Part shown: one piece after another, positions 242 to 40,407 of the stretch
Position numbering within the stretch: the stretch's first letter is position 1
How the letters are laid out: the number at the start of each line of letters is the position of its first letter
Assembly (NCBI GenBank): GCA_030374765.1
Contig: JARGXX010000034.1
Coordinates: 372,001 to 436,000, forward strand
Direction of reading: 5' to 3'
DNA from: Agarophyton chilense
Lineage: Eukaryota > Rhodophyta > Florideophyceae > Gracilariales > Gracilariaceae
DNA length: 64,000 bases
Program-made: the position numbers and the translations under genes
The notes under the pieces: model-generated
Databases searched by the model: none
Told to the model about the DNA's origin: nothing
What the model saw: only the letters and a program-made list of their open reading frames with translations

Positions 242-3200
242 TTGGGAGTCTCCTCTGCGGGAGCGGCGTCTTCTAAGCCGGAGTTGAAGACGCCCGAGGC
301 GCTCCAGCTTCGCTCCCCAGCTATGACTATCCTTTCAAGGAAAACGGCTGACACCGACCTTAACTCGGGATACTTTAGTGTCCTCCGTCGCCCGTGGATA
401 CGGTCCCGTAATCTCCGTATTCCGGATCGAGTTATGGTAATGGCCAAGCGGAATTATAAAGTATTCGCCGACTTCGGCCTGTCCAACCAGTTTATGGTTC
501 GTCAAATATCTGTCCTGGATACAGGAGCCGCTCCTAACTTAATTCATGTGGAATTGTTACCCCCGCTGCTCCGGGTCCAAGTTCGTACCGGTCCACGTTT
601 GGATATCGCCGATGCGAACAACAACCCGCTACGGACACTGGGTACAATTTCCCTCATGGTGAGGTTAGGCTCCTATCTCGTCCAACTGGAGTTTATTGTA
701 TGCAAGTCACTTGCAGCACCAGTCATACTGGGTTGTGACCTTTGCGACCGCTTCGTGGAAGCCATCCGTCCTCGGAATAGAACTGTGGAACTCGAAGACG
801 GGTCTACGATCCCAATCGTTCGTAAACCCTTACAGGGAGCAGCGCGAACACGCGTCCCTCTCCCCGTCGCGCAGAAATCCGTGAAGAAGGACCCGGTGTC
901 TACACGGGTAAAGGTTGCGAAGTCATTGGCTATCCCGCCAGAAACCCAGGTTTGGGTCACAGTTGTTACCAAGCAAATTGGTGTGCATGTGGTACAACCG
1001 AACCCGTCTCTGTATACGCGGCGTCAACTAGCCCTTGCGAATGGGGTTGTCTCCGTGGAACCGGATAAACCTTTCAAGGTTTTGGTAGCCAACTTTGGAA
1101 AGACAACGCAGCGTTTGGTCAAACACTAGATCCTGGGTTCTGTTCTTCCACACCCGCATGCGGTCGTACCTACAAGGATCTCTATCGCAGAGGTCCTTGG
1201 TGTGGCGGACCCTAAGGAGGGGGAGGACACTGCCGAAATCGCGGAAGACGGTGAGCATACGACTGCAGCTCCACACGCTGAACACTTTAAACCTCAGGAG
1301 GTTACGGCCCCTATCACAGGAGCAGACCAGACGGATCCTGTTCAGGGATTGGGAAAATGGGATCTCAACCATGTACCCGCATGTCATCGGGAGAAGCTGA
1401 GGCACATGCTTCGTGAATTTACCCCCATGTGGGATGGTTCCCTTGGAACTATTGGGATCACAGAACACCGCATCGACTTGTTAGCGAACACTCGGCCTAT
1501 TGCCCAACACCCTTACAGGGCTGGACCGAAAGCTCGGGAAGAGGAGAAATCTCAGGTGGAGAAGATGCTTAAAGCGGGCGTAATTGAACCTGCCCAGTCC
1601 GCTTGGGCCTCACCAGTGGTGTTAGTTCCGAAACCGGATGGATCGTGGCGTTTCTGCATCGATTACAGACGCCTGAACGAGGTAACCATTAAGGATGTGT
1701 ACCCGATCCCTCAGATGGACGAATACATCTACTCCCTTGGGAGCGCTACTGTTTTCTCTACCCTCGACGCCAATTCGGGCTACTGGCAAGTCCCTATTAG
1801 TGAGGAAGATCGAGACAAAACGGCTGTCGTGTGTCATCAAGGACTTTTCCGATTCCGGAGGATGCCTTTTGGGTTGACATATGCCCCCGCAACGTTTCAA
1901 CGGGCGATAGACATTCTGTTGGCTCCCTTCAAGTGGAGGACGTGTCTAGTGTATTTAGACGACATTATTGTCTTCTCCAACAACCTGGATGATCACCTCG
2001 AACACGTCAGGGACGTAATGAAGATACTCCGCGACGCGGGAATCACCTTGAAACTCAAGAAGTGCGAGTTTTTCACCGATTCGGTTTAGTATCTGGGTCA
2101 TATCATCCGTCCCGGACAGCTTTCAATCGATGAAGTACGAGTGAAATCCTTGAAGGAAGCAAAACACCCGAAAACTCAAACGGAGTTGCGATCCTTCTTA
2201 GGTCTGTGTAACGTGTATCGCCGATTCGTCCCGAACTTTGCGGATATTGCCACCCCCCTCAACAGGCTCCTGACGAAGGGACAACCAGTTGAACTGGAAC
2301 CTTTTGGCGACGCGGAAGCGTCTGCCTTCACGGCACTGGTGAATGCCGTAACATCACCGCCAATCTTGGCTCTACCCAATCCTGGGCTCCCTTACGAAGT
2401 GGACACCGATGCTAGTGCAAACCAAGTAGGGTGTGCACTGTTCCAATCCTCTGAGGATGGTGAACGTCACCCTATTGGGTACTGGTCACGTTCCCTGAAT
2501 GTGCATGAAAGGAAATACTCGGTCTCCGAGAAAGAATGTTTAGCCGTCGTGTGGGCCTTAGCTACACTTCGCCCCTATCTGATGGGTACTCGTTTCAAAG
2601 TCCATACGGACCACGCATGCTTGCGTTGGCTCCTGGAGATCTCCGAACCCTCGGGCCGCCTTATGCGCTGGCGTCTCCGACTGTCGGAATTCGACTTTGA
2701 GATCCTGTACAAGAAAGGGAAGCTGAACACTCAGGCTGATGCACTATCCCGCTTGAGAACAATAGCGGAAACGGAACCCTACGAGGACGATGACATCCCA
2801 TGCTTTATGGTATCGGACCTCGAGGGAGGAGCTCAACCGCTGACCGATGATGTTTGTGACGTTATACTCGTCAACGAGAGTCTGGATTCGCCGACCGGCT
2901 CTTTAACTTCGGATACTCTCGAACCTGGGCCCGCTCCCTCAAGGGCCCAGTCAACGAACTCTTACAGAGTTACTCCCCCACCGAAGGTAATCAAGCCTCC
3001 TGGCTCTCCGCCTAAGGAGGGGGAGGAGGACTTAGTTCCTTCGCAGGACGATCTTTTGGCGTCAGCCAGTCGCCCTAACAGGGAATCTAGTTCTCACAGT
3101 GAGACGGCGAGCCCGACCGAGCCGGCGACAGAGAAGTCACAACCCCAGCGTATGGGTAGCGACATCACCGCCGACCTAGCCGAGCACGACGTCAGAAAAG

Positions 3201-3415
3201 ATGACGAAACTCCGCCTAGGGAGGGTCGTGTGGAGAACTCCGCACCCGGAACGCCTATAGAGCCGACGATCACCCGCCGCCGCGGAAGAGACACTGAGGT
3301 GTCGCACACTCAAACCCCGCTTTCTCGGGAACGAGCTGTGTCAGCGGACCCTCACGGGGAAGATCTCGACGACGAGGTTGACAAAATTTGGCTCTCCGTT
3401 ATGGAATGGGAATAG
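242..3415 (+). pseudogene. Gy1 pol: protease, reverse transcriptase, RNase H; integrase missing
   Basis: One reading frame is interrupted by TAG at 1127-1129 and TAG at 2087-2089; the second replaces the Lys codon of the Gy2 counterpart (AAG in Gy2). Order: retropepsin with D-T-G-A near 518; RT with a WRFCIDYRRLN block, FGLT and YLDDIIVFS near 1952; RNase H starting 'VDTDAS', with 'SEKECLAVVWAL', 'TDHA' and 'ADALSR'. After RNase H the frame goes straight into a Pro/Ser/Glu-rich linker like the one that follows integrase in Gy2. The HHCC zinc finger and D-D-E core are absent, about 1 kb compared with Gy2. No ATG is evident at the head of the frame; the first codon is TTG, so expression as a Gag-Pol fusion is likely. 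The copy cannot encode integrase and is not autonomous. Confidence 0.9.
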
Positions 3416-3995: not shown

Positions 3996-4235
3996 ATGGA
4001 AGAGAAGCCCGAACCGGGAAAAGTGTACCCGCAGGAATTCGTTATCGATCGCATCGTGCGTCACATCTACACCCCCGAGGGAGAAGTTCGCTACCAAGTC
4101 CGATGGTACGGATTCTCGCCCGATGAGGATACAGTGGAACCCATTGAGCACCTTCCGAGGTCTAAGGTTTTATCCTATCACCGACGCGCTCGGGTAACCT
4201 TGCCTTCAAATCTGGATCGTGCCCAAGTCGGATAA
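3996..4235 (+). CDS. Gy1 C-terminal chromodomain
   Basis: From ATG 3996 to TAA 4233-4235, 79 residues. The core 'FVIDRIVRH...YQVRWYGF..DEDTVEPIEHLP' has the aromatic cage-type Tyr/Trp and the W-Y-G-[FY] signature of chromodomains. In chromoviruses this domain sits at the end of integrase and guides insertion toward marked chromatin. It lies in frame 3, whereas the upstream pol is in frame 2, so it is no longer fused to pol here. In Gy2 the same domain is in the pol frame. The domain itself looks undamaged. Confidence 0.85.
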   Translation: MEEKPEPGKVYPQEFVIDRIVRHIYTPEGEVRYQVRWYGFSPDEDTVEPIEHLPRSKVLSYHRRARVTLPSNLDRAQVG

Positions 4236-4646: not shown

Positions 4647-6503
4647 CTACGGATAGCCCGAGGAGGGACCCGCCCCACCGTTGGGATTCTGACCCTGATG
4701 GTACGCCGAGGCGAAAGCCAACATCTGGCTCACATCCGTCATACCCGGGGGAATCGGAATGCCTGCGTTCACGAGGCCTTGTCGCACACTATCCGCTTGC
4801 GGAGTGGCAACCGGCGCCTGCGCAAGGGTGTTCACACCCCACCCGGGGGGAGCAGATGAACCGCCGCCGGATGCATTCGCCGCCGCAGCTGAGGTCGTTC
4901 CCACTGGTTGGAAGGGTGCAGATCGCTCCACAGGGAGTACTCCACTAGGAGCTGGCACTTCGTTATCCAACGCTGGATCGTCCAGGTCTACTGGAGGCTC
5001 GTACTCGTAATCGTCGGTATAAATGAACCCCGTCGGGTGTCCAACCGGCATCGGTCGAGGCGAGTCAATCAGCGCCCGTGCTTGCGCCGCGCTGATGCGA
5101 ACCCCTTCGAAGGGATTGTAATAGACCCAGTTACCGGAGCCCGGATCGTACCGGCCAGGAGACTTGTCTCGCGCGGATCCTTCCCCTGCCGAATGATTTG
5201 CCACTGAAACTCGATCCCATTGGGTGTTGTCGATCACGTCCAAGATTGGATACAGGTCCTGTACGTTGCTGGCCGAACCCAACGCTGGGACAAGGTCGAT
5301 CTGACGCATGATGGTCCGTAGCATCGGAGGAATATACCAGATACAGAAATGGTCATGAGCATCCCAGAGGAGGTGCGCCGCTACGCGGGCTGCCCACTCG
5401 GCTGCAACGAGGGCCCAGTATCCCGAGTTCGGGTCGTGCATCAAACGAGACCCGATATAGTAGATACATGGGGGCAGTTCAGCAAAGCACCCTCGGGGGA
5501 CCTCGACCTTATTCCACCAAGCTGGAAGGGGCGCGAATCGCCCAACCTTCGCCGTGTTACGGATACGCTCCAGTTCCACGTGAGGATACGGGACAAGGAA
5601 CCCGAAACGGGAGCGCCAGCGGCGCTCGAAGCGCACGCGTCGATCGAACCCATACTGGGTAAACTGCCGCTGAAGGTACCTGAATTCAGCCCGAAGGATG
5701 GGACGACTCCATTGGAGCATATCTTCTCGGAGAGGAAAACCCGGTCCGCGGAACTCGGCTTCGGGAAAGGCTGCCAAGTTATCCCCGTAGGAGACCTCAC
5801 CGTACGTGCGGTAATAGGCGACATCGAACCCGTACTCCGGGGGAACCAGATGGTCAAAGCGTGACCTCTCCAATCGCTGGTAGGCCAGAGCCGCCATCGC
5901 TGCGCGCGCCTTGTCCAAGGACTCCCCGCGACTGCGGTATAGATACTGAGGCTCTATGGCTACCCGCGCCCTCCAATCGGGAGAACGTACAACCTCAACA
6001 GGTAGGCCACCCGGCAATAAGCCGTCCTCCACGTAGGAGTCGATGAGCTCATCGTCGCGAACCGCTGTCGGATGGAACCACGGAGCGCGGGAATATATCA
6101 CCGGATCGGTAAGGGAACTCCACCTTCGAAAGGATTCGTTTGAGATCCAAACTCTGGAGTTTGCTACCAAGGGCATCGCATGAGCGGAGTTCCACGCCAC
6201 CGCGGTGATGTCCAAATCCTCCTGAGGATGTCGATTGACCGCCGAGGCGGAAGGTTCGGTACCTGACGGAGCCGCATCCAAACCGGAGAAATATCCACCC
6301 TGCTGGGGAGCTTCGTTGTCCGCCGGCGCGGAGGCCGATGGCCCCGAGAGTGGGTTGATGACGTATGGGTTCATTCCCTTGAGAGGGCTAGTCGAAACCG
6401 CTGCTGCGAGAAGTTGCGTATCGCCGAAAGTCGGAGGTGTAGAAGAAAGTTGTACCGATGAGCCGGTTTTGTGGCGATCCTCAGAAGTGGTGAAGGACCC
6501 CAT
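4647..6503 (-). CDS. aORF1: long antisense gene of Gy1, unknown function
   Basis: A 618-codon intact frame on the strand opposite gag-pol, with ATG at 6503 (the frame stays open upstream to about 6542) and TAG at 4647-4649. I do not recognise the family. The N-terminus is Ser/Pro-rich. The core is rich in Trp, Tyr and Arg, with 'APWFHP.AVRD', 'RPILRAEFRY', 'WW...EVP' and 'IWYIPP' blocks. The tail is Pro/Ala/Gly-rich. No signal peptide, transmembrane helix or nucleic-acid motif is evident. The same blocks occur in the antisense genes of Gy2 (35813-37588) and Gy3 (26023-27103 plus 38499-39460), always between the chromodomain and the 3' polypurine tract. It is undamaged although pol in the same copy has two stops. 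Extra antisense ORFs are known in some plant gypsy elements such as Grande; a relation is not shown here. Confidence 0.8.
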   Translation of the reverse strand: MGSFTTSEDRHKTGSSVQLSSTPPTFGDTQLLAAAVSTSPLKGMNPYVINPLSGPSASAPADNEAPQQGGYFSGLDAAPSGTEPSASAVNRHPQEDLDITAVAWNSAHAMPLVANSRVWISNESFRRWSSLTDPVIYSRAPWFHPTAVRDDELIDSYVEDGLLPGGLPVEVVRSPDWRARVAIEPQYLYRSRGESLDKARAAMAALAYQRLERSRFDHLVPPEYGFDVAYYRTYGEVSYGDNLAAFPEAEFRGPGFPLREDMLQWSRPILRAEFRYLQRQFTQYGFDRRVRFERRWRSRFGFLVPYPHVELERIRNTAKVGRFAPLPAWWNKVEVPRGCFAELPPCIYYIGSRLMHDPNSGYWALVAAEWAARVAAHLLWDAHDHFCIWYIPPMLRTIMRQIDLVPALGSASNVQDLYPILDVIDNTQWDRVSVANHSAGEGSARDKSPGRYDPGSGNWVYYNPFEGVRISAAQARALIDSPRPMPVGHPTGFIYTDDYEYEPPVDLDDPALDNEVPAPSGVLPVERSAPFQPVGTTSAAAANASGGGSSAPPGWGVNTLAQAPVATPQADSVRQGLVNAGIPIPPGMTDVSQMLAFASAYHQGQNPNGGAGPSSGYP

Positions 6504-6584: not shown

Positions 6585-7497
6585 TGTAGAGCAACGCCCA
6601 GTCAGGGGATACTTGAAGATGCAACTCATAGAATGAGGATTGAACCCTCCGAGGGTTATGATTATGATCCCCTCTAAGGTGTGCTGAGGTGGCACTGTTT
6701 TCTGGTTATATTTCGCCTATAAGGGAAAATTCGGATGGCCCATGGTTGGATTGGCCCCGTGATACACGTGGCTTGATTTTGGCACCGAATTTCGGATATT
6801 TGTTAGAACGTTGGATTTTTGGGCCCTGGCAGTGGGATCTCTACGTGTATGGCCCTGAGCAGGTTTGCACTACTGTAGAGTTTAGTTAGTGGGCCCTACT
6901 TAGGGAGGCGAGATCTGACAGTCCGAGCTCAGAGTAAATGACAACCAAGGTTGGTCTTCGATACCTTTAGAGGTTCTTCGTCGCCATCGTTTCGGCCTTA
7001 CAACCCGGAACGCGCTCTGGTTAGCAACGCCTGCGTAGGGACACGACTCCACTTGGAGAGTGCCCACGTGTGGGTTCCGTGCAACCACCCCCTTGGGACC
7101 GCTCAGACGACCTGCGTGCACGATACCCCGTGGGGGTTCTGCTTACTTGTTGCGTGCTTTTTGTGTTTCCTTTCGAGGACAGGTTTTCGCCCCTGTATTG
7201 GGTTTCTTTTGTTGTTTTGCCCCTTTTCTGGTTCTCAGGTCCGGTGTCTGTTAGTGCCCGACCCTCGCCCCGTTTTTCCTCTTCGCCGGATTTTCCCCCA
7301 TTCTTTGGGATACCCATACCCATTCCCGATCCACGGTTTCTACCCCTCACCTCCGTCGGTACTGCCGGAATCCCCCGTGGGAGTTACACCCCACACTACG
7401 GGTGGAACGGAGGGCTCTGTCTCTGAGTCTGCCTCCCCCAGGGAGCAAGGCTTCGAACATCTTGAGAGCACTTCCCGTCGCCGGGTTTTGCTCCACA
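6585..7497 (+). repeat. 3' LTR of Gy1 (913 bp)
   Basis: It starts TGTAGAGCAACG right after the polypurine tract and ends CTCCACA, matching the layout of the Gy2 LTR (TGAAGAGCAACG...CTACA) and the solo LTR at 45957. Near the 3' end, bases 7474-7485 form a perfect 4 bp stem (CCCG/CGGG, loop TCGC), found at the same position in the other two LTR families. The 5' LTR is outside the window, so the target duplication cannot be checked. The next base starts copia sequence. Confidence 0.85.
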
Positions 7498-10092: not shown

Positions 10093-11400
10093 CTATTCGG
10101 GTTGCATACGATCATTATCGATACAGTATATTATACCATAAAAGATGCGCATCGGTTTTCGAAACCTTCCACACATGACCTTACACATAGGTCCCATCCC
10201 GTCTGACTGGAGTAGTTGCATGACCTTCTCGGCCTGATTCCTCACGCCTAGTGCTTTCCGTGGCAAATGTGCGGATTTTCCAACTGCACAAGGCTCAAAG
10301 AAGCGTTTGTCAGACACTATAGAAATTCCAACACCATCTATAGCATTAAGAGTTCTTCCGATTGCATCCAAGCCAGAATGCTCAAGTCGTTTGTGCCGCA
10401 GTTGTGTAGATTCCGTGCTTGCTTTTGAAATAAATGCCGATTTCTTGGTAGCAGAAAAAAAAACCACCTCGTAGAGGCCTGTCTTGATTTCTATACTTGA
10501 AGCCAAAATATCGCCAGTTCGTTATTTGAATTAACAGACTCGTTCTCATGTTTATCAGACTTTAAAACGATAGAGAAGCCTTTAGTGCGAATGAAACTCA
10601 CCCAAAAAAGGGTGTTCATTAAGTCCGGTACGTACTTAACGTTTTTCGAGCAATATATAATTCTCATAACCGAAAAAACGCCTCTACAATGCACATAACC
10701 TTCACATGTAATGATGGCGGTTTAATCATTGCAATTCGCAATGTCCTTTTTTGAAAAACGAAGATCTCCTGGAAAGATGTCCTCTCTGTTGGTAATGTGC
10801 TTTTTGGAACCAGAGTCCAAATACCACATTTGTTTTCCCATGACAGACCGCTTCTTTCCAGAGGCCACATCTACTGCAATAAAAGACATGCAGGCATTTT
10901 CGTTCGTTATTTCGTACGATTTTTGGGACGTCTTCGGCTTCTCAGTGCCTTTTAAAGACTCCGTTTTTCTTCACGTAGTTCTTGCTTTAGGGATTCTTTC
11001 GGCAAAAGCGTTTGATGTGTCCCTTCCCGTTACAAAAGAAGGAATTTATGTTTTTATTCGATGTAGACCTTCAAAGGTAAAACGAGGCGCCACTACTGCT
11101 CCCAGGCTATTATAATCCGTCCATGTCCACCTGAACCTCCCTCGTGATTAGCACTGGAGTGGTTTCGTATAATTTCTTGTCAACGGCACGAATCACCTCT
11201 GTGGTAACTTCATACATTTTTGACAACCCTCAAAGGAGGGCACGTAGCTTATCTTTGTCAGATACAGAATGACAGACACTGACGAGCTCCAATTCGACTT
11301 CTACTAAACGGCTCATGTATGCTAGCACAGACTCAACAGGTGACCTGCATATCTCTTGGTGCTTGTTGAGCAGAACGTCGATAATGGCTTATGACAAAAT
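10093..11400 (-). pseudogene. CopC: conventional Ty1/copia gag, protease, integrase N-terminus remnants
   Basis: Reading on the minus strand: a UBN2-type gag piece near 11400-11110 ('SVLAYMSRLVEVE...LRALL', then stops); a standard copia protease near 10860 with 'WYLDSGSKKHIT' (D-S-G); its C-terminus 'NVKYVPDLMNTL' at 10694-10491; then 'HKRLEHSG' and 'FFEPCAVGKSAHLPR', the HHCC pre-integrase region, and the start of the integrase core at 10506-10093. Frameshifts and stops separate the parts. It is truncated at about 10092 where CopB sequence begins. This family differs from CopA/B/E because it keeps the ordinary D-S-G protease. A short piece of the same gag recurs at 16098-16210. Confidence 0.75.
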
Positions 11401-12351
11401 TTCAAAGTTCTTTCGCAGTGTCTTCCACCCGACTTGTCGAACATTCTCTTAAAGAACAGGGGCAATATTGGAATCGTCTACCGAAAAAGCATGCACGAAA
11501 GCGAAATTTGGCGTTTCTACTGATGCGTTTGTTGCTCCGCTTCCGAATATGGGCCCAGAATACAGACAATGTCATTACTGATACTCCAACCATCCTTGGG
11601 CAGCCACACCAATTTGAACTTGCGAGACCACATGAAGTAGTTATCGGCCTACAAGACAGGTACGCGTAGCTTAGAATGCTCGACGAGAGTGCTTACAATC
11701 TTGTGTACGGATCGAAAGAGTTGGGAAGCACAGATTGCGATACGCTAGATCCATATCTTCTTATTGTAGAGGTAGAAGTTGTTGGGTCGAAGCTACCGAT
11801 GATTTACTGTCGCGATGTTGCTCTGCTAGGGTCTTAAGTACTACTTGTTCTAGCTTCTTGGCTTCCAGCATTCTACTCTCTGAAAAGTAGTGCTGCATCG
11901 CACAGTTCTCCAGATTGAGCGCAGTGTAGAAGCCAAACGTCCGTACTTGACAACAGTAGCTAAACGTCCATCTTGGACCGTCGGAGCTAAATGTTCATGT
12001 CGGACAACAAGGTTAACCCTTCTTGTGGAGGGCCAGTCGAGGAGAATACACAGCCCACAAGAGTCATTGTGATTGCAATAACGGACACTATTCGCCTCGT
12101 TGCATTTCACTTTGAAATGTAACTGATTGGTCATTGTGGAGCAGAACTCTGCAACTTAAACTATCCCATCTGTCGGTTTTTCTTTTGTTTACATTTTGAA
12201 ATGTATGGTCAAGAAATCTACAGTTCTCAGACAGCCAATTTCAAACAGAAGACACAAAAAGTGATTTTACTTCAGATGGTGAAGATTGCTGCACATCTTA
12301 ATATCTGCCCACAAACGTGGGGATGCACGAGTGTACCCTAGATATTTGTAC

Positions 12352-16074: not shown

Positions 16075-17172
16075 CCTTCGAGATTGATTCTCTGAAAGTC
16101 CACGAGCTTCGATTCGACTTTTGCTAGACGGCTCACGTATGCTAACACAGACTCACCGGGTGGCATGCATATCTCCTGATACTTGTTGAGCAGAACGTCG
16201 ATAATGGCTTATGACAAAATTTCAAAGTTCTTTTTTTGTGTCTTCCACATAACTTGTCGAACCTTCTCTTCAAGAACAGAGGGAATACAGGAATCGCCTA
16301 CCGAAAAAAGGATGCACGAAAGCGAAATTTGGCGTTTCTACTGATGCGTTTGTTGCTCCGCTTCCGAATATGGGCCCAGAATACAGACAATGTCATTACT
16401 GATACTCCAACCATCCTTGGGCAGCCACACCAATTTGAACTTGCGAGACCACATGAAGTAGTTATCGGCCTACAGGACAGGTACGCGTAGCTTAGAATGC
16501 TCGATGAGAGTGTTTACAATCTTGTGTACGGATCAAAAGAGTTGGGAAGCACAGATTGCGATACGCTAGATCCATATCTTCTTATTGTAGAGGTAGAAGT
16601 TGTTGGGTCGAAGCTACCGATGATTTACTATCGCGATGTTGCTCTGCTAGGGTCTTAAGTACTACTTGTTCTAGCTTCTTGGCTTCCAGCATTCTACTCT
16701 CTGAAAAGTAGTGCTGCATCGCACAGTTCTCCAGATTGAGCGCAGTGTAGAAGCCAAACGTCCGTACTTGACAACAGTAGCTAAACGTCCATCTTGGACC
16801 GTCGGAGCTAAATGTTCATGTCGGACAACAAGGTTAACCCTTCTTGTGGAGGGCCAGTCGAGGAGAATACACAGCCCACAAGAGTCATTGTGATTGCAAT
16901 AACGGACACTATTCGCCTCGTTGCATTTCACTTTGAAATGTAACTGATTGGTCATTGTGGAGCAGAACTCTGCAACTTAAACTATCCCATCTGTCGGTTT
17001 TTCTTTTGTTTACATTTTGAAATGTATGGTCAAGAAATCTACAGTTCTCAGACAGCCAATTTCAAACAGAAGACACAAAAAGTGATTTTACTTCAGATGG
17101 TGAAGATTGCTGCACATCTTAATATCTGCCCACAAACGTGGGGATGCACGAGTGTACCCTAGATATTTGTAC

Positions 17173-24997: not shown

Positions 24998-25168
24998 TCA
25001 TCTCTTTCTAAAGCTGACTTTAACCGAGAGGTTGACGAGAGGTTTTAGACTGAGATGTGGAAAAATCGTGAGGTATTTTTCCGGAGTGCATAGTAAGCTG
25101 CAAAGATTGAGCTAGACAATTGTCTGGCTTAGTAGCCGGATCAACCAAGTTCTGTTAGGGTAACCAAA

Positions 25169-25862: not shown

Positions 25863-26022
25863 CCTTAGACCTTCGTGGTACTCATGCCTAAGGAAGGGAG
25901 AGAAAAGACGTCGTTTTCCGCAGAAGGTGGACGCATATGCGTGTCAGATTACTTACAAGGGAGGACACGAAAGAACAACCAAATGTAACAGTAGAGGAGA
26001 CAAGAAGAGACAACAATTTTCT

Positions 26023-27103
26023 TTAAAAAGGACCTGTCGGTTTAGGAGCAATGGAATCAGGAATACCCGTGATATTGACTACCCACGGAGGAAAACCTGC
26101 GGAAATGCTAGGAGCCATCGACCTAAGAGGTAGCGAAGGAGCGGTAGCCCCGCCACTGGGGAGAGGAGTCGAAACCAAAAGAGGATGAACGGGAGGAACC
26201 GCTGGAGGGGGTTGAAAAACCACAGGGTTCAAGTTAGCACTTAGAAGGGGATCCATCAAATGATCAGATGGCGCAGCAGCAGAGACGCTCGCCAGATTGG
26301 AAAATTGACGGGTGGCCAGTTGGTACATGTCCAACTGGAACTGATTCCGGAACTCACCAAGTTGGTTCAGCGCCTTCATGTATTGCGCATGGCGCGGCAG
26401 CAAACCTTCAAGGAGTGTTAATGCAGCAACCACGGAGACAGGCCCAGCCCTCTGAAAGTTGGTGACGCAACCCTGGCGAATTCGAGCCAGCAAAACGACC
26501 ACGGCTGAAGAATCCATCGTAGGTTGAGGCGGAGGACGAGCAATACCCGCCAACAGAGGTCGAACCGGACCAACAACCCGCGAGGAGCTCGGTTGAGTAG
26601 GAGTCACACCCGTAGGGGTAGGCGACTTACGACCTTGAGGTAACGGCTCGGACGGGAAGGGTCCAGCATAACGACCTACCGGTGTCTCCACAGTACCTTG
26701 ATAAGGTTTGGGGCTCGCGGGAGCTCCATAAACAGGAGGCTCCCCGGGATAATATTGAGCGTGGCGAGGCACAATCTCCCAAGTTGCGGGATCGAAAGCC
26801 TCCCAACCTTGATGGGAATTCCAATGGTAATTCTTGCCCTGCTCGAGATACGAGTCAAAATCCTTCACGGTATAATCGGTCCCCTGAACGATGTTCTCGT
26901 AACCAAATCGGAAAATATCCTGGACAACCGACGGAGTGGGCACGCTCAGCGACAACGGAACCTCATAGGACTCCCACCAATCTGGTCGAAGCACGTACCA
27001 ATCTTGTCTACCCTTTGTAAGTTGTGAGAAGTACTCGACGTTATGAAACATATGCATAACGCGAGTGTAAAAGTTGCGAGTGCGAACGCGACTCTCGGTC
27101 GCT
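26023..27103 (-). pseudogene. aORF3, C-terminal part (split by Gy2)
   Basis: The frame is open from 27103 down to the stop at 26023. It includes 'HNVEYF...KGR.DWYVLRPDWWESYEVP', which aligns with the 'HVELERI...GRFAPLPAWW..VEVP' block of aORF1, followed by a Pro-rich tail. The missing N-terminal part lies beyond Gy2 at 38499-39460. Reading from 38501 across to 27103 without Gy2 stays in frame. The function is unknown; see aORF1. Confidence 0.75.
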
Positions 27104-27108
27104 GCATC
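27104..27108. repeat. Left target-site duplication of Gy2
   Basis: GCATC here against GCATA at 38499-38503: 5 bp with one mismatch, the expected length for gypsy integrase. Confidence 0.75.
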
Positions 27109-30207: not shown

Positions 30208-33200
30208 AGGGAGTCTCCCTTCGGGAGAGGCGTCCTCAGAGTTGAGGCTGACGACGCCCGAGGCGCCGATGCCTCGCTCCCCGGTGAAAATCCTGACAAG
30301 GAAGGACACCGCAGACGCGGACTCTAAACACCTCGGTGGTCGACCGTGGATACGGATTAGAAATAACCGGATCCCGGATAGAGTCTTGGTAATGGCCAAG
30401 CGTAACTATAAGGTTTACGCTGACCTTGGTCTGCACACGCAGTTTTAGGTGAGATATCTCACTGTCCTGGATACAGGTGCTGGGCCGATCTTTATTGTGG
30501 AATCGGTTTTACCCCCGCCATTGCGGTCACTCATCCGTTCTGAAACGGTACCCAACGTCTCAGACGCCAATAACAACCCGTTGAAAACGGTTGGTGTGAT
30601 CGACCTGGTCGTCAGGCTAAGGCGGATGGTGGTTAAACTAACTTTTATTGTGTGCCGCTCGCTGGCCGCGCCAGTTGTACTGGGATGTGACTACTGCGAC
30701 AGGTTTGTCGACACCATCCGCCCACGCCTTAAGCAGGTGGAACTTGAGAACGGATCGACCGTCCCTATTGTTCGTCAACCGCTGAAGCGGGCATCGAGGA
30801 AACACGTCCCTCTACCTTCTGCGCAGGAACCCACACCGGCGAACCGGGATTATACGAAGCTACGCGTTGCCTCGTCAGTCACCATACCCCTGGAGAGCCA
30901 GGTTATGGTTTCAGTCAATTCCCGTCAACACGGTCTTCGGATTGTTCAGCCCTTGCCCTCGTTGTACGAGAAATTTCAGTTAACCGTTGCGAACGGAATC
31001 GTGCAAGTCACGCCGAATTCCCCTTTCAGGGTGTTGGTTGCCAATCTGGGAAAGGCTCCCCAGACGCTGGCAAAGAACCCAGTCATTGGGTCTGTGACGC
31101 CGCACCCGCTCGCGATGCTCCCTACAAAGGTGACGGCTGCCGAAGTACTCGGAATAACTCCCTCTACCGAGGATGGTCTCCCGGTATCCGTTGCAGAAAC
31201 CTCCGGGGAGGCACAGCAGTTGGCGCTCGATAAAACCGTCAAGACGGATGCATTTCCGACCTCGTCGGTTCCTACACCTGACACCAGGGCACAGCCTACG
31301 AGCTACGATAAGATAGACCCGATCAAGGCCCTCGAGGACCCGGACCTGAGTCATGTACCGGTCTCATATCGGGACCGCTTACGCGGAATGCTACGCGAGT
31401 TTACCACAATGTGGGACGGCTCACTGGGTGAGATCAATACAACCGAACATCGGATAGACTTGCTACCGGACGCACGTCCGGTTGCACAACCCCCTTACAG
31501 GGCGGGACCGAAAGCTCGGGAGGAGGAAGAATTTCAGGTGGACAAGATGCTCCGTGCTGGAGTCATCGAGCCCGCCCAATCTTCTTGGGCTTCACTGGTG
31601 GTGCTGGCCCTCAAGGCTGACGGTACATGGCGGTTTTGCGTTGACTACCGCCGCCTCAATGCCGTCACCGTGAGGGACACCTACCCGATTCCGCGCATGG
31701 ACGAGTGTATAGACTCGCTCGGGGACGCTACCGTGTTTACGGCTCTGGATGCTAACTGGGGCTACTGGCAAGTCCCAGTCCGGGAAGAGGACCGAGACAA
31801 AACCGCGTTTGTTTGCCACTCGGGTTCCTACCGCTTCAAGCGGATGCCGTTTGGTTTAACCAATGCACCGGCCACCTTTCAAAGGGCAATAGACATACTG
31901 ATGTCGCGTTTCAAGTGGCGCACGTGCCTTGTCTACTTGGACGACATAATTGTCTTTTCCAGAAACCTGGACGATCACCTGACCCACGTGCGGGACGTGA
32001 TGACCGTACTGCGAGACGCAGGAATAACCCTCAAGTTGAGGAAGTGCGAGTTCTTCACCGACACGGTGAAGTATCTCGGGCACATCATCCGTCCAGGACG
32101 GTTAATGATCGAACAAGTTCGTATCAAGTCCCTCTGTGAGGCGAAGGAGCCCCGTACTCAAACAGAGCTCCGATCCTTTTTAGGTCTGGTCAACGTCTAT
32201 CGACGGTTTATACCGAGTTTCTCGGATATCGCCGCTCCGCTAAACTCGCTACTGCGGAAGGGCCAGCCACCGAAGCTTGCTCCATTTACCACCGATCTGT
32301 CGGAATCTTTTTGCTCCTTGATTAAGGCAGTTACGACAGCTCCCATCCTATCCTTGCCCAAACCTGGGCTTCCCTACTCCATCGACACCGACGCCAGCGA
32401 CCACCAGGTGGGCTGCGCACTGTTCCAAACCACCCCCGAGGGGGAATGCAAACCAATTGGCTATTGGTCCCGCACGCCAAACGTCCACGAGCGTAACTAC
32501 TCGGTCTCCGAGAAGGAGTGCCTCGCAGTGGTCTGGGCGCTATCCACTCTGCGCCCATACCTCATGGGCGTTCATTTCACCGTGTACACGGACCATGCCT
32601 CGTTGAGGTGGCTGCTGAATATCGCAGATCCTTCTGGCCGCTTAATGCGGTGGCGCCTCCGCTTAGCGGAATTCTACTTCGAGGTCGTCTACAAAAAGGG
32701 TGTCCAGAACACCCAAGCAGACGCCCTCTCTCGATCACCTACGACAGGTGAAGCACTTGCCGACCCGGAGGTCGACGAGATCCCGTGCTTTACCTTGGAA
32801 GGGGAAACACCGACGGAGTCGGATTGGCCCGAAACCGGGGAAGACACCATGGAAATGGATGAGCTACTCGCAGCGCGCGAGAATGAAACACCCGTACCCG
32901 GGACCTTTGTACCCATCTCCACCGAGGAGATGATCCGAGAACAGTTCGGCGACCCGTTCTGCACGCGCATACGGGCCCGCCTAAACGGTTGAGAGGACCT
33001 CCCGTTCGAGGTAAACGACATCGGTTACCTCTTCCGGACGGTGGACCACCGATCCCAGATCGTGGTCCCCCACACCCTGCAAACCAGGGTGCTCCACCTC
33101 TCACACTACCCGACCCTCGGGGGACACTCCGGTGGGAGAAAACTTTATCTAACCCTGCGAAGGGACTTTTATTGGCCCGCTATGGCGGTTGATTGCTACG

Positions 33201-35479
33201 CTACGGTGCAGTTCTGCACCCAATGCGCAAAGAACCGGGTGAAACTCCGGAAGCACTCCAAACGGATGACGCTTTTCCCCGCAAGCGCGCCCCTCGAGTT
33301 TGTCGCAATCGACATTCTCGGGCCTCTACTCAAGACGCGCAAGGGAAACAAGTTCCTCTTGGTTATCACTGACCGCTTTTCGAAGCTGGTGCGCACCGTA
33401 CCTTTACGGAAGATCACCGCTTTCACGGTTGCAAACGCCTTCGTTACGCACTGGGCGTTCGTTTACGGCCCTCCGATAGAGGTTCTATCCGATAACAGTA
33501 AGCAGTTCGCCTCTAAGTTCTTTCAGGACGTCTGCCGCATCCTCGACGTCAAGAACCTGTTTACAACCACCTACCACCCGCAAACAAACGGGCAGGTGGA
33601 ACGCTTCAACCGCACCCTACTTGCGTCGCTACGCTCCTACGTATCCGATCACCCAATGACGTGGGACATTTATTCTGATGCTATCACCTACGCCTACAAC
33701 ACGCAGGTTCACCGGACAACCAGTCTGACTCCCTTCGAGCTTGTGCTCTCCAGGACACCCCCGCCAGTGGCGGTCGAACCCCAACACAGGGTCAACTCTT
33801 TCCCATCTGTGGGTCAATACCGCCTCAAGTGGAAGAACTGGCTTACCAAGCTCGTACCGGTCGCCCGGAAGTCCATGGAACGTGCCCAGGCCGCCTACAA
33901 GCGGGATTTTGATAACCGCTTACGCGGACCACTACCGGCACCGCCCAAGCCGGGAACCTACGTGTTCGTTCGTCGGGAGTACTACAACCCCCGGACCGAC
34001 AAGCGTCACAAGCTCTCGCCTGTCGGGGAAGGTCCGTTCCGGGTCGTGTCCTCCCTCCCCGGCACCGTTGTGGTGGACAAGAACGGCGACCACGAACGTC
34101 TTTCACAAAACCGCATCGTAGCCGCCCCACCGCCGCAGGCGGAAAACGCATCAGCCTCCGTCGAAACGGCCTCGGATACCATGGGTACAACGGTGGCACC
34201 ACGCCCCGCCGTGGTACCGCAGCCCTCACGGGGTCTCTCCGATATACCGACTTTATCGGAACCACCGGCAATGCCGGAAACACCTGGCCCTCGCGGCCAG
34301 CTACCCTTACGGGCGCCGAGCAGAGGTATTTATACCCGCCATGCGGTTAGCCCACCATCACCCGTCGCTCCGTCTAAGGAGGGGGAGGGGACCCGCTCAA
34401 TCGCGGAAGCATCGCCGTCGCAACGGAAGTTTAACCGGACACCCCGGGCAAGGCCCCCGAGCGGGCAACCGGAATCGTCGCCGGACGCCAATCCGCTCCC
34501 GCGGGACGCGGCGGTCAACCCGACCGCCACGCAACCCCGCAAGGGGGACCAAGGCGCTCGAAGACCCGAAGCCGGGAAGCGAGACCCTACGGACGCTCCG
34601 CATCGCGTGGAAGCAACTGAGGGCTCCCCGCACATTCGCGGTCGCACACCGAGCGTTTCGGTAGATACCGGTACTCCGGCGGGCGCTGCGCAAGCAGGTC
34701 TAGCGAGCCACTCCGTTGAGAACAGTACAAACCCCATGGGGGAAAAGGGGCCCGACGACAAGTCGAAAACCGCCTCCCTTGCCGAACAATCGGAGCCAAT
34801 CGTCTGCGACGGTCCGACCACCCGTCCTCAAGGTCACGTGACCCGGGCGGGAGATCGGACCAATGGGCACCCGGCATCCAGGTCATTGGCTGACAGCCAC
34901 CCCGCGGAGGCGGATCGCCGGGACGGTGAACCACTCACCGCCCACAGCGCACCGCACGGCGGAAACTGCCCACCAATGGGAACGCCGCATGCCGCAAATC
35001 AAGCGGAGGCCTCCGGCGAACCGTCACCAAGACGGAAGGACCCCGGCTAACTCGCGGTAAGAGCGGACTTCAGGGAAGCCCCTACCGCCCAGCGGAAACA
35101 CAACCCGGCCGCGCCGGCAACTTCCGCGAAGCGACACGGCAGCCCCGGCAACCCGGCAACAACCGCAGAGCGGAATGACAAACCGGGTGACCCGGAACAG
35201 GCGACGACGAGCCCAGCCCCACGCGGCGCTGAGGCTCGGGTCACCACCACCCGGCAAGGCCGGCAAGTTTACGTGCAGGAGTACGTCCTCGACCGAATCG
35301 TCGGACATAGCTACGATGGGCACGGAGTGCTCCAGTACCGGACCCGCTGGTACGGATACGGGCCGGAGTGGGACACTCCGGAGCCCATCGAGCACCTCCC
35401 GCGCTCTGCGGTAATGCGATACCACCGCCTTGCGGGGACCGCACTCCCAGCCACGCTGGTAAACGCCCAAGAGGGATAA
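30206..35479 (+). pseudogene. Gy2 pol: protease, RT, RNase H, integrase, chromodomain; three premature stops
   Basis: One frame throughout. Retropepsin 'VLDTGAG' at about 30461; RT with 'WRFCVDYRRLN', 'FGLTNAPATF' and 'YLDDIIVFS' (about 31936); RNase H 'DTDASDHQVG', 'SEKECLAVVWAL', 'TDHASL', 'ADALSR'. The integrase has H..H/CTQC zinc finger, core Asp in 'AIDILGP', Asp in 'LSDNSKQF' and Glu in 'GQVERFNR', plus a GPF module 'EGPFRVV'. A ~400-residue Pro/Gly/Ser/Arg-rich linker follows, then the chromodomain 'YVLDRIVGH..YRTRWYGYGPEWDTPEPIEHLP'. Stops: TAG 30446-30448 before the protease, TGA 32990-32992 between RNase H and integrase, TAA 35048-35050 before the chromodomain. All catalytic residues are kept. 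Confidence 0.9.
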
Positions 35480-35812: not shown

Positions 35813-37588
35813 TCATTCCTCCGCACGAGGTGGACCCCCGCCCAGGCGGTTGGCTAAGGCATCCCGCATGGCGCCCACATCACCCGAGATCTCGGAAGGG
35901 CGAAGCCCCACCTCCCGAAGGAAGCGCGCAATGACCTCGCCCCGCTCCGCGCCAGCGGCAGTTGCGGGCGGGCCCGCCACCGATGAAGTCGGATAGGAAT
36001 CCGTTCGCACGGCATCAGCAGCACCGGATGGAGCCGCACCACCGTAGTCAACGGACCCCTCACCGGCCTCGCCGGACTCTTCATCCTCCATCGGAGCGTA
36101 ACCCGGATCCTCCGGTTCGTTGTCGACCATCGGGTTACCATCCGCATAGTCGCAGTAATAGTCGCTCGAGTCGACATACCCTCGCGGGTGGTCGGCCGGG
36201 ACTTCACGCGGCGCATGCCGGTTGGCTTCCGCTTCCTCGCAGCTGATCTCGTGGTACTCCCAGGTGTCGAAGTAGATGAAATCCCCCGCTAGCGCGGTAT
36301 TCCTCCCGAATCCGGGGCCAGACCCGCGACGCGGTTGAATGCGTTGAAAGTTCTCCAGCGGGACCTCATCCCACTGGACCCCCTCCACAAAGTCGAGGAG
36401 GCCCAGCATCTCTTCTTCGTTCGCCTCGCCCCCGAGGGGAATGCGCATGTCCAAACGGCGGATCGCAGCCCGCACACGCGGTGGCACGTACCACAATCGG
36501 TATTGGTCGTACGCCTCAGCGAGGATAAAAGCCGCAGTGCGGACGGCCCATTCGCTTACCACGACGGACCACCACCCCGACTGGGGATCGTTCAAGAACG
36601 ACGACCCTACATAGGTGAAGACTGGGGGCAGCTCAATGAAGCAACCCCAGCACGCCTCCAAGGAGGATCACCAGTCTGGGAGACTGAAGTACCGACCACG
36701 TCGGTGAGCAGGCGCGATGCGCTCAATCTCCATGTTCTGGTACGGCACGAAATACCCTGTCCGGGCCCACCAACGCCGCTCATCGCGGATGAAGTTCTGA
36801 AGGAAGTTTGAGCGCGACTGCCGCGGTTGGTAGCGGAACTCTGCCCGAAGAATCGGTCGTGCCCAGCAAAGGGCTTCTTGCCGAGCGATCGGTGTGCCCC
36901 TCCAAGCGAGTGTTTCCAATCCGTTAAGACGGTCACAGTACGACATTTCCCCGCGAGTGCGGTAAAGGTGGACGTCGAATTCGACCTCTGGCGGTATCGG
37001 GAACTCGAAAGGCGCCCGATGGTGCCTGAGATAAGCGATCCGCACAAGCGCGGCCTGAGCCTCCGCAGAGGATTCACCGCGTCGGCGGAGTATGTGGTGT
37101 ACCGGGATGGCGATACGATTACGCCAATCCCAGGACATGGTCACCACGCCGGGCAGGTCGCCCGGGAGCATCTCCGAATTATCGGTGTAGGAGTGGATCA
37201 AATCCTCGTCGCGGACAGCCAATGGGTGAAACCAAGGCGCATACCGCAACATTGCGGAGCCATGCCGAGTTCTCGGATTGGCACCCACAAGGGCGTCGTA
37301 GGTCGGCCACTGCGGTGGGTCCGCCTGTCCGCGAAAGCGGGCGCCAATACGGCGGTCTTCGTACGCGAGGTTGGTAACATCCCCAGGGTGGGGCGCGGAC
37401 CGGAAGCCGGTGGAACCGCCAAGGGCGGGAGTCGCGGATGTGTTATGACGGTCGGGGTTGGACATGGTGCGTGTTGGTGTGCTGTGGTTGGAATCGGATG
37501 CGGAGAGCGTGCGTGGGATCCTTGGTGAAGGTGTGTTGGTTTCCGGAGACCCGGTGTCGGACGCGCTCTTATCATGACGTGCTGCCAT
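35813..37588 (-). pseudogene. aORF2: antisense gene of Gy2, one premature stop
   Basis: ATG at 37588 (MAARHDKSA) to TAA at 35813, 591 codons with a single TGA at 36668-36670. It replaces the second Trp of the W-W pair conserved in aORF1 and aORF3 (TGG to TGA). It aligns with aORF1 along most of its length ('APWFHPLAVRDEDLI', 'RTRGEMSY', 'ARPILRAEFRY', 'FVPYQNMEIERI', 'LWYVPP', 'QWDEVPLENF'). The C-terminus is acidic, then Ala/Gly-rich. It starts only ~46 bp from the LTR, so a minus-strand promoter inside the 3' LTR would drive it. The function is unknown. Confidence 0.75.
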
Positions 37589-37634: not shown

Positions 37635-38498
37635 TGAAGAGCAACGTCCTCCAGGGAGGTTTTTGGGGACTTAAGTTTTTTCCGGAGCCTCCGGCGTGCA
37701 ACCTCGTTATGAGTAGGAGTAATCCGTTTTCACGGCGATGGCCGGAACGCCGGTGATGCACCGGCGGGACCGGGTGCCATACACGTGGCTGCAGCGCCCG
37801 CGCGACACGTGGCCGCCAGATTGGCCCCTTTGTTAGACGGACATTTAGCTCTTTAGGATAGACTTTATTTATTCTATTCTACGGTGACTACAGTACTTAG
37901 GCCGCCGGCCTCGCGGCCGCCGGTCCAGTAAAGTCTCCCCAACAAGGGTGATCTTGGTCTTCCAGATCTTGGCTCTGGGTCGAACCGCCTGCGCGGGTAT
38001 ACAACTCCTTACGGAGGGATTTCCCGTGGTGCACGGCTTCCCAACCCCCTTGGACGTTCTAGCAGCCTTCGTGTGTCGGGTATCTATTCCCACTTTCGTG
38101 GTTCCGCCCGTGTATACGGTTTGCTACTCCCGGCAGTGCCGGCTATTCCCGAGTCCCCTCTTGCGACTCGTGGTCAACCTCGCCCTCTTGCCTCCGTTCC
38201 CATTTTCCTTCCCTTTTCCTCCCCTTCATTGGGCAATTCCCGCTCTTGCGGCTCGCACTGACACCTGTCGTGCTCGCCACTCTCGTGGGTTTTGCCTCCT
38301 CAGAGGATACGCAAGCACCACTTCGGCGGATATTCTCGGCTTCTTTCAGCCTCCCTGCCCCCGTCGCGACGGTTCGGCTCCGGCTTACACCCGGCATGGC
38401 GCGCCGATCCCAGGGAGGGCTCTACTGCGCCGGTTACCTCGTGAGAGGAAGATCCGGACGTCTTCGTAGGTTTTCCCCCTTGGGGGCATTGTCCTACA
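37635..38498 (+). repeat. 3' LTR of Gy2 (864 bp)
   Basis: Same length as the 5' LTR. The near-terminal hairpin reads CCCC-TTG-GGGG (38476-38486) where the 5' LTR has CCCA-TTG-TGGG, so the pairing is kept by two matched changes. Confidence 0.95.
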
Positions 38499-39460
38499 GC
38501 ATACTCGCCCGACCTACTACGGTCAGCCCAATTGATAGTGGTGAAAGGCCGATTCAGGGAAACCAAGTCAGGTGAAACCGGAAGGTAAGTTTCCGGAATA
38601 GACGGGTACTGGCACAATCGCACCACCAATCGACGGTAATAATCCAGCTCCGGTTCGATGCGCACATACGGAAAGTCGCTCGGATACATCGGCGGGATGT
38701 AATACCTCAAAGGTATATGACGCTTCCGACTCTGGGGACATTCCATTCGACCCTGACGAGGTTGAGACTCTTGGTCCCTTTTCTTCAAGAGCAATGGGAC
38801 GGAGCGGAAGCGCTCGCAGTCCAAACGGAACAAACCCAAATAGCTATCCAATTGCGGTCTAGTGAGAGCTGCCGGCAATGACGAATTCCCCACCGCCACA
38901 GGCCAATCGTGCTAAAACAGGTCACTATGAGTCACCTGGTCGAAGGCAATACCAAAAGGTCCATACTGATTCGTCGTCCGGTTCGCCGCACCAAACGCGG
39001 GATTGTGAGCCCAATTGGTTCGTGTTGTGGCAGGAAGTCCACCACTGTGTTGGTATGGGTCAGCCGGAGTCTCAGGGGAGAACAGTATCGCAGGGACAGG
39101 CACGCTGCGAAAACCAATGTTGGTAGGCGTTCTAGAAGACGAGCGCGTCACCCTCTTGGTAATACCACTGCGTTCACGGCCACGCGATGGGCCGCTACCT
39201 GATATGATTGAGAAGGCAATAGCACTAACCGACAAACGAGGTAATGACTCGACCTCCACCGCTGCGTGGAACACCAGCGGATATTCAGCTTTCTTAAGTG
39301 ACGCCTCCTCGGTCCGTTCCGAGGAGACGGCAAACGTATCCGACCTTTCCGATAGTACCGAAATCGACCTTTTAGGTGCAACAGTTTCCATCGTACGGGC
39401 GCGAGCGGTTTCAGACCTTTGAGGTATCGTGGAGTGGGACCAATCCGACCTTAAGGGCAT
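38499..39460 (-). pseudogene. aORF3, N-terminal part (split by Gy2)
   Basis: ATG at 39460 down to the Gy2 border, with one TAG at 38912-38914. The first five bases (38499-38503) are the right target duplication GCATA. The N-terminus is Ser/Arg/Glu-rich. The later 'YYIPPMYPSDFPY...DYYRRLV' segment matches the 'VPPEYGFDVAYYR' region of aORF1. The gene continues at 27103 after Gy2. Confidence 0.7.
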
Positions 39461-40407
39461 AACTTCAGGGGTATCAATCCCCTCGGAATCGCCGACTTCT
39501 TCAACCTCGATGGAAACCGGCCCCTCATGTCACTCGAGCGCTGGTGCTGCCTGTGGGGACGACCCACCCCTTTGAGATATCCCTTCGAGGCATCGGTGGC
39601 GAATCTAAGATGCTGCGCGAGGTGCATCGACGTGGCGCCGAATGGGTTTGCACGCGCGCGTGGGAGCGTCGCGATCCTGTCATAGCCTTGGAGGCAAACC
39701 AGAATGCAAAACTGGAAAAAGGTCGCGCAACTACATCAAGGGAGCGCTCGTCGCGCACCGTGAGCAACCGCCGGCGGACACCACTCCGATACCCGCGCTG
39801 CTGTCGGTCGCTAAACCTTTATGGTTTGATGGAAGGAGACACGGGGCTTGTCTCCCGGGTAGGAAGAGGGTCTGTCGTATAGTGGCAGAAGGTCTGATCT
39901 TTGAGGTTGTCGATATACTACACTGACCTTGTAGGTGATGGATGCGAGGGATCATCGACCACGCAGCTCCGGGCGAGCTACCATCTAGGTGTTGTCAGCC
40001 ACGTGTAGTGTTGACATGTACCTTCTGGTTGAGGAATTGTTAGTAATTGTAATTGTAATAATTTTTGTTTTAGTACAGTAGTGGAGTGGCTACCTGGCAC
40101 TGTAGCCAGTGCTGGCCAGGTCTCTGACACTAGGTCAGAGACCGTGCCTTGCTGGCACCTCCCGGGTGATCTGTAGAGTGCAGTCCACTGCATATAGGTA
40201 ACTGCACCTCCTCCACCCTAGTCTGATAAAGAAATGCACCACTTGGGTCACAACGATACCTTTTGGTTCATTGTTTCTCAACTACCACATAGGTTTTACC
40301 GCGCGTCGACCCTTACCATCGTTCACCTACACGGTATAGGCTAGTTGCCCCGCCGTTTGCCCCTGCGGGTTTTCAAGATGCCCTGTTACCATCGAGGTTT
40401 ATCACGT
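39461..40407. other. Probable Gy3 3' end / LTR remnant, unresolved
   Basis: No supported gene. By analogy with Gy1 and Gy2 the Gy3 polypurine tract and LTR should lie here. A TGTAGTGTTGACATG start at about 40004 and a CCCCTGCGGG segment near 40355 resemble the start and end of the gypsy LTRs, but no second copy confirms this. The CopA RT fragment begins at 40408. Confidence 0.3.

What the first reader, a model, noticed from the sequence alone, without database searches (positions are those of the whole stretch)
4647..6503. A homologous long antisense gene in three divergent gypsy chromoviruses
Gy1, Gy2 and Gy3 each carry a ~590-680 codon gene on the strand opposite gag-pol, always between the chromodomain and the 3' polypurine tract. 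Shared blocks (A-P-W-F-H-P, R-P-I-L-R-A-E-F-R-Y, W-W...E-V-P, W-Y-[IV]-P-P) persist although the proteins are very different overall, so the gene has been kept through long divergence. In Gy1 it is intact while pol has two stops. It has no membrane segments, so it is not an obvious envelope. It may regulate or restrict the element, or act as a separate protein made from a minus-strand LTR promoter.
Basis: partly seen in the sequence, partly recalled or inferred. Interest (0 to 1): 0.82.

Follow-up and report, generated by a model that had tools for sequence, protein, structure and literature searches.

The report
Antisense accessory gene in red-algal retrotransposons
At least five families of virus-like jumping elements in a red alga carry the same extra protein gene on the strand opposite their usual genes; selection has kept its protein sequence, and it likely makes a helper or regulator protein for the element, which gives a little-understood kind of gene a new protein family to test.

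Summary
The antisense gene is real and wider than reported. Gy1 has an intact 618-codon frame at 4647-6503(-). Gy2's window copy has one in-frame stop; Gy3's is split by a nested Gy2. Stop-free copies of all three, and two further families (Gy4, Gy5), exist in the genome. In Gy1, Gy2, Gy4 and Gy5 the gene lies tail-to-tail with the chromodomain and starts 35-97 nt from the 3' LTR. Between families the antisense frame is conserved as protein: codon-position identity 54/64/34% for Gy1/Gy2, dN/dS about 0.17-0.27 (dS high). Within families copies mostly decay neutrally, as in the RT control. The host is a red alga; the named homologues are hypothetical proteins of Gracilariopsis chorda and fragments from Agarophyton chilense. 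No Pfam, PDB or fold match was found. Except in Gy3 the protein is nearly lysine-free (2-6 per ~600 residues); pol is not. It works like the antisense additional ORFs of plant Grande/Retand and fungal Boty, but no TRP28 domain was detected. Best reading: an accessory protein, likely transcribed from the 3' LTR and acting in trans. Expression and function are untested.

The parts
4647..6503 (-). Gy1 antisense accessory gene, intact, 618 codons
   Evidence: ATG to stop with no internal stop; 42 of 71 scored genome copies have no stop
5004..6191 (-). Conserved core of the protein (residues 105-500): 77 invariant columns in 16 sequences (Gy1, Gy2, Gy4, Gy5 and P0002), 10 of them tryptophan
   Evidence: alignment A4
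497..3415 (+). Gy1 protease-RT-RNase H, with stops at 1127-1129 and 2087-2089; integrase core deleted near 2905
4026..4235 (+). Gy1 chromodomain to its frame's stop, tail-to-tail with the antisense gene
   Evidence: YPQEFVIDRIVRH...WYGFSPDEDTVEPIEHLPRS
6585..6960 (+). Start of the Gy1 3' LTR (TGTAGAGCAACG...), 81 nt from the antisense ATG; proposed site of the antisense promoter
   Evidence: promoter role inferred
35813..37588 (-). Gy2 antisense gene, 591 codons, one in-frame stop at 36668-36670 in this copy
   Evidence: copies without stop
30449..35050 (+). Gy2 protease-RT-RNase H (30449-32992) and integrase (32993-35050)
35270..35479 (+). Gy2 chromodomain to its frame's stop, tail-to-tail with the antisense gene
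   Evidence: YVQEYVLDRIVGH...WYGYGPEWDTPEPIEHLPRS
37635..37960 (+). Start of the Gy2 3' LTR, 46 nt from the antisense ATG
26023..27108 (-). Gy3 antisense gene, 3' part, cut off by the nested Gy2
38500..39529 (-). Gy3 antisense gene, 5' part (left bound approximate), with a stop in this copy

Best explanation
These chromodomain-bearing Ty3/gypsy elements of a red alga carry an extra gene on the strand opposite gag-pol whose protein has been kept by selection, and which is likely transcribed from the 3' LTR and likely acts in trans as the element's own accessory factor. Shown: one homologous gene in five families, tail-to-tail with the chromodomain in Gy1, Gy2, Gy4 and Gy5, with purifying selection on the protein between families. 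Inferred: transcription starts inside the U3 part of the 3' LTR, because only 35-97 nt separate the ATG from the LTR. Predicted, from a weak model: a mostly helical core, rich in invariant W and R, between low-complexity tails. Untested: its action. I commit to a regulator or helper that binds the element's own nucleic acid or chromatin complex in the nucleus, comparable to Grande gene23 and the Retand TRP28 proteins. Its scarcity of lysine is predicted to lengthen its life by leaving few sites for ubiquitin.
For: Between-family frame scores and codon-position identities: Gy1/Gy2 54/64/34%, Gy2/Gy4 68/73/43%; NG86 dN/dS 0.17-0.27 for all six pairs of Gy1, Gy2, Gy4 and Gy5. Sense-strand chromodomain just past the gene's 3' end. 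Start near the 3' LTR. Copies without stops: Gy1 42 of 71; Gy2 N-half 106 of 129, against 101 of 129 for an RT segment of the same length; these lists hold only the best-scoring copies. P0003 of G. chorda is sister of Gy2 in the protein tree. Lysine: 17 K against 45 expected over Gy1, Gy2, Gy4 and Gy5, and R-to-K replacement 3 of 94 in three disjoint pairs against 17 of 46 in pol and integrase. Position and orientation match known plant antisense aORFs, for which nuclear location and a regulatory role are reported or proposed (PMC7264820; PMC11963269).
Against: No transcript or protein data. No domain or fold match; the AlphaFold models are weak (mean pLDDT 31 and 48), so a nucleic-acid or chromatin role rests on analogy alone, and a pI of 5.2-7.4 in seven of eight proteins (8.7 in Gy3) does not favour it. 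Two Gy4 copies with open frames of 1919 and 1823 codons over RT lack most or all of the gene, so it may be dispensable in cis. Within-family dN/dS is weak (0.64-0.71), and in the shared-variant test one minus-strand frame scored as low as the gene frame in each of the three families. Lysine scarcity is not seen in Gy3 (17 K, 18.6 expected).
Confidence: 0.55

Rival explanations
1. The antisense RNA, not the protein, is the product: it pairs with the sense genomic RNA over about 1.8 kb, and the resulting double-stranded RNA controls copy number.
For: The gene overlaps the sense genomic RNA, and such a role is discussed for plant antisense aORFs (PMC7264820).
Against: Third codon positions are nearly free while first and second are conserved, and other frames score far lower; an RNA function would not conserve one reading frame. 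Both roles could still coexist.
Confidence: 0.15
2. The protein is structural or envelope-like: part of the particle or needed for transfer between cells.
For: Its place between pol and the 3' LTR is that of env-like genes (PMC7264820); long low-complexity tails.
Against: Antisense, unlike env-like genes; the most hydrophobic 19-residue stretch averages 0.93-1.54 in seven of eight proteins scored, 2.04 in Gy3.
Confidence: 0.12
3. It is a self-restriction or host-derived factor that limits the element, kept because it lowers harm to the host.
For: The window Gy1 copy keeps the gene intact while pol is broken; two Gy4 copies with a long open frame over RT lost it.
Against: One broken copy is not evidence of selection: after insertion copies decay nearly neutrally (singleton omega 0.80-1.05). 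Host genes related to it outside elements were not sought separately, so a host origin is neither shown nor excluded.
Confidence: 0.12
4. A long frame by chance or by base composition, with no product.
For: GC-rich DNA gives long frames; Gy2's antisense region also has a 233-codon sense frame.
Against: Five families share one protein, and annotated homologues exist in another genus.
Confidence: 0.02

Closest known systems
Antisense additional ORFs (aORF-3R) of plant Ty3/gypsy elements: Grande gene23, RIRE2, Retand ORF4, PvRetro13
   Same: Between pol and the 3' LTR, antisense to gag-pol, in most copies of a family, shared by several families, function unknown (PMC7264820, parts 1 and 2 of 3 read). 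A survey counted extra ORFs of 250 codons or more, either orientation, in 3372 plant Ty3/gypsy elements (PMC6317226, passages only).
   Different: Different protein (no TRP28 detected), red-algal host, chromodomain elements. Retand is a non-chromovirus lineage of flowering plants (PMC11963269: search listing, passages, Discussion). Lysine scarcity is not mentioned in what I read.
brtn of Boty-like elements of Botrytis cinerea (Zhao et al. 2011, seen only as cited)
   Same: Antisense additional gene in a fungal LTR retrotransposon (PMC7264820; PMC8365987 passages).
   Different: Sequence not compared: no brtn sequence was at hand.
HTLV HBZ / APH-2 antisense genes
   Same: Antisense retroelement gene, with an antisense promoter inside the 3' LTR in HTLV (PMC7264820; PMC11963269).
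   Different: Those act in retroviruses of people; no sequence link was sought. HBZ being a bZIP protein is recalled, not from a call.
Hypothetical proteins BWQ96_03215 and BWQ96_10156 of Gracilariopsis chorda
   Same: Homologues of 617 and 565 aa (P0003, P0004).
   Different: Named only 'hypothetical protein'; their genomic context could not be seen.

Membership tests
LTR-retrotransposon antisense accessory ORF (aORF-3R) | Lies between pol and the 3' LTR | tested here: met
   Gy1 and Gy2 in the window; Gy4 and Gy5 have the chromodomain on one side and the LTR edge near the start
LTR-retrotransposon antisense accessory ORF (aORF-3R) | Antisense to gag-pol | tested here: met
LTR-retrotransposon antisense accessory ORF (aORF-3R) | Present in most copies and conserved like other element proteins | tested here: inconclusive
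   Stop-free Gy2 copies 106 of 129 against RT 101 of 129, but both are capped lists of best-scoring copies and copies were not matched one by one; of four Gy4 copies in the RT list, two lack it
LTR-retrotransposon antisense accessory ORF (aORF-3R) | Own antisense promoter and transcript | not testable with these tools
   no RNA data
LTR-retrotransposon antisense accessory ORF (aORF-3R) | Nuclear protein (reported for Grande gene23) | not testable with these tools
   no localisation data
Retand TRP28 (PF04195) proteins | TRP28 domain detectable by profile | tested here: not met
   hmmscan of the 7 members of A1 and 16 of A4 up to E 10: no PF04195; HMMER's filters drop most weak matches, so a very distant relative is not excluded
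Chromovirus | Chromodomain downstream of a Ty3/gypsy integrase | tested here: met
   Gy2 in the window; Gy1 copies L054/L055 have integrase; the chromodomain was recognised by eye and by similarity, no Pfam call was made on it
Chromovirus | RT falls in the chromovirus clade | not tested
   no RT tree was built
Env-like gene | Transmembrane segment and sense orientation | tested here: not met
   antisense; hydropathy maximum 0.93-1.54 in seven of eight proteins, borderline 2.04 in Gy3

The most novel reading that the evidence does not exclude
This is a new class of retrotransposon accessory protein: an antisense-coded trans-acting factor made almost lysine-free by selection, older than the split of Gracilariopsis from Agarophyton-like algae, that escapes the host's ubiquitin system while controlling the element from a two-way LTR.
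Probability: 0.25. Interest if true: 0.78.

Novelty: new variant of a known kind. Interest (0 to 1): 0.58.

Why it matters
Antisense accessory genes of LTR retrotransposons are known in plants and fungi, but their functions are open. A family with five divergent lineages in one genome, many stop-free copies, a conserved core and an odd, testable trait (almost no lysine in four of the five) gives a good handle on what such genes do and whether LTRs drive genes both ways. It also suggests that two 'hypothetical proteins' annotated in a red-algal genome are element genes.

Tried and rejected

Sequence: Pfam and NCBIfam scans gave only sub-threshold hits (DUF3905 at E 0.08-0.12 and others weaker); profile against PDB sequences gave nothing below E 7. 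Scans of viral contigs and genome contigs with P0002 and A2 found no relative.

Within-family dN/dS as proof of function: rejected. Gy1 and Gy2 copies came from the top of lists ranked by protein score, which favours low dN, and the RT control behaves alike. Shared-variant omega was 0.48 (P 0.02) for Gy1, 0.78 (P 0.16) for Gy2, 0.73 for Gy3, 0.31 (4 N, 6 S; P 0.06) for RT. In each antisense set one minus-strand frame scored as low (Gy1 0.38, Gy2 0.78, Gy3 0.74). In one search three of 18 Gy3 rows (L061 and the two window flanks) covered too little and were dropped from the tests.

The RT rows for Gy1 used a wrong frame and are dropped; the other rows stand. One search gave LTR distances one base too short for Gy1 and Gy2; one search corrects them.

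Print: ten paper searches. In the titles and abstract starts that they listed I saw none on antisense genes in red-algal LTR retrotransposons; several lists showed only part of the papers found (for example 10 of 78), and most subscription papers are not in that library.

Full report
Observation. In Gy1 the minus strand of 4647-6503 is one frame of 618 codons from ATG to stop; frame 1 of the sense strand of the same stretch holds 11 stops. Gy2's counterpart (35813-37588, minus) has 591 codons and one in-frame stop in this copy. Gy3's is broken by a nested Gy2 whose LTRs start at 27109 and 37635. Gy1's own pol has stops at 1127-1129 and 2087-2089 and also lacks the integrase core: copies L054 and L055 carry about 1.36 kb there that the window copy does not, encoding integrase 62% identical to Gy2's.

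Is it more than chance? Yes. Translating all six frames of each region and aligning every frame with every other, the antisense frame gives 796 for Gy1/Gy2 (next best frame pair 446, shuffle maximum 64), 147 for Gy1/Gy3 (shuffle maximum 64) and 136 for Gy2/Gy3 (shuffle maximum 60). Identity by codon position in the locally aligned part is 54/64/34% for Gy1/Gy2 and 44/54/31% for Gy1/Gy3. Third positions are near random while second positions are conserved, which is the mark of selection on the protein in that frame. NG86 dN/dS is 0.17-0.27 for the six pairs among Gy1, Gy2, Gy4 and Gy5, with dS of 1.6-3.6 and so only approximate; for Gy3 pairs dS is saturated in three of four and the fourth gives 0.37. 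An hhalign comparison of the Gy1/Gy2/P0002 profile with Gy3 gives 96.8% probability.

How widespread? The window's genome has 79.8 Mb in 135 contigs. Scored copies, which are lower bounds, are 71 for Gy1 (42 without stops), 129 for the first half of the Gy2 gene (106 without stops) and 110 candidates for Gy3. An RT segment of the same length as the Gy2 piece gave 101 of 129 without stops, four of the 129 being Gy4-like at 86-87%; among the best-scoring copies the antisense gene is thus kept about as well as RT. A search with a divergent copy showed two more families: Gy4 (7 copies at 94% or more, open frames up to 624) and Gy5 (dozens of rows at 53-59%, many with open frames of 652). In L092 and L093 (Gy5) and in L090 and L095 (Gy4) the chromodomain lies on the opposite strand just past the gene's 3' end. 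In the four families other than Gy3 the first ATG is 81 (Gy1), 46 (Gy2), 97 (Gy4) and 35 nt (Gy5) from the LTR edge, with a purine-rich tract of the sense strand in between (the Gy4 and Gy5 edges were set by likeness to Gy1 and Gy2). Alignment A4 of 16 sequences (Gy1, Gy2, Gy4, Gy5, P0002; Gy3 not included) has 77 invariant columns, 10 of them tryptophan and 14 arginine, none lysine.

Host and relatives. RuBisCO large subunit and 14 of 15 phycobilisome matches sit on contig C39, so the host is a red alga. The matches in the 5.8-billion protein set, found with A4, are eight: P0002, P0006 and P0009 (unnamed), P0003 and P0004 of Gracilariopsis chorda, and P0005, P0007 and P0008, fragments from Agarophyton chilense, the best at 94% (95%). 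Searches with P0001 and with A1 had found only P0002. Both named species are Gracilariaceae. The host is therefore likely Agarophyton or a close relative. In the protein tree P0003 is sister of Gy2 (support 100/100) inside a clade with Gy4 (98/99) and, less firmly, Gy5 (94/96); P0004 and P0009 are unplaced. If the gene passed vertically, Gy2, Gy4 and Gy5 are older than the split of the two genera; horizontal transfer was not tested.

Within-family evolution. IQ-TREE codon omega is 0.64 (Gy1, 16 rows), 0.64 (Gy2, 28 rows), 0.71 (Gy3, 15 rows) and 0.575 (RT control, 21 rows). Internal branches make up 7-11% of tree length in the three antisense sets and 2% in RT, and singleton variants have omega 0.80-1.05 (RT 0.82). 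Copies mostly decay neutrally after insertion, so this test neither proves nor refutes function. In the Gy3 gene frame one stop occurs among shared variants, against 9-13 in the other five frames.

The protein. It has no Pfam, NCBIfam or PDB relative at a meaningful score, no clear transmembrane segment except a borderline one in Gy3, and weak AlphaFold models suggesting a mostly helical core. An unexpected trait is the near absence of lysine: 6, 2, 3 and 6 K in Gy1, Gy2, Gy4 and Gy5 against 11.1, 10.6, 11.4 and 11.9 expected from codon-position composition (together 17 against 45, Poisson P 1.6e-6, families not independent), and 5, 1 and 5 in P0002, P0003 and P0004. The gag and pol pieces of Gy1 and Gy2 that I counted have 3.2-5.8% K. 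Asparagine, which shares the AA start of its codons, is not scarce. In-frame AAR codons number 17 against 55 and 25 in the other two frames (Fisher P 0.0007 against the two together). Nine antisense-protein pairs were compared; in three disjoint ones arginine is replaced by lysine in 3 of 94 changes, in the six overlapping ones in 0 to 3 of 33-50 each, against 17 of 46 in pol and integrase (P 3e-7 for the disjoint pairs). Gy3 does not share the trait (17 K, 18.6 expected).

How it likely works. Shown: an antisense protein gene kept by selection in several element lineages. Inferred: with so little room between ATG and LTR, the transcript starts in the U3 of the 3' LTR, so the LTR would serve as a two-way promoter. 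Inferred by analogy with plant antisense ORFs, for which nuclear location (Grande), a DNA-binding prediction (Retand TRP28) and regulatory roles are reported or proposed (PMC7264820; PMC11963269): a trans-acting accessory factor. Trans action fits the loss of most or all of the gene in two Gy4 copies that keep open frames of 1919 and 1823 codons over RT, but it is not shown that those copies moved after the loss, and dispensability explains them as well; two other Gy4 copies of the same RT list still have the gene. Low lysine is predicted to protect a regulator from ubiquitin-driven turnover; that link is recalled general knowledge, not a result.

Known or new? The kind of gene is known. The protein family, red-algal chromodomain elements as its carriers, and the lysine trait did not appear in the paper listings and passages that I saw. 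Verdict: a new variant of a known kind.

Noticed in passing
window 11282-13029 and 16102-17850: A near-identical direct duplication (spacing about 4.82 kb) carrying a gene on the minus strand whose start looks like a signal peptide, followed by PTPSAAAVSS-type repeats (36-base units); similar-looking genes at 19125-19739 and 22921-23571.
   Followed up: no
window 24655-24954 and 44015-44314: 94% identical direct repeats that look like LTRs of a copia-type element; Gy3, itself interrupted by Gy2, lies between them: a nest of three elements.
   Followed up: partly
window 25136-25891: Gy3 sense-strand frame ending in a chromodomain-like stretch (FPVDRLVGH) that appears frame-shifted in this copy; it points toward the antisense gene as in the other families (by eye).
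   Followed up: partly
L088 and L089 (G000:C68 and G000:C21): Gy4-like copies with open frames of 1919 and 1823 codons over RT whose antisense gene is largely (L088, a 56-residue remnant) or wholly (L089) gone, with different spacing between chromodomain and LTR.
   Followed up: partly
G000:C39: Plastid contig of 227,691 bases whose ends repeat: the same phycobilisome-type matches recur 185,684 bases apart, suggesting a plastid genome of about 186 kb assembled past its start.
   Followed up: no
window 52921-53183 and 58161-58423: 92% identical direct repeats flanking copia-type frames on the minus strand.
   Followed up: no
L092:378-480: The Gy5 protein starts with a basic stretch (PRRMHKS...GAKKRSAAK) that resembles a nuclear localisation signal; by eye I saw none as clear in the Gy1, Gy2 or Gy4 proteins, and no predictor was run.
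   Followed up: no
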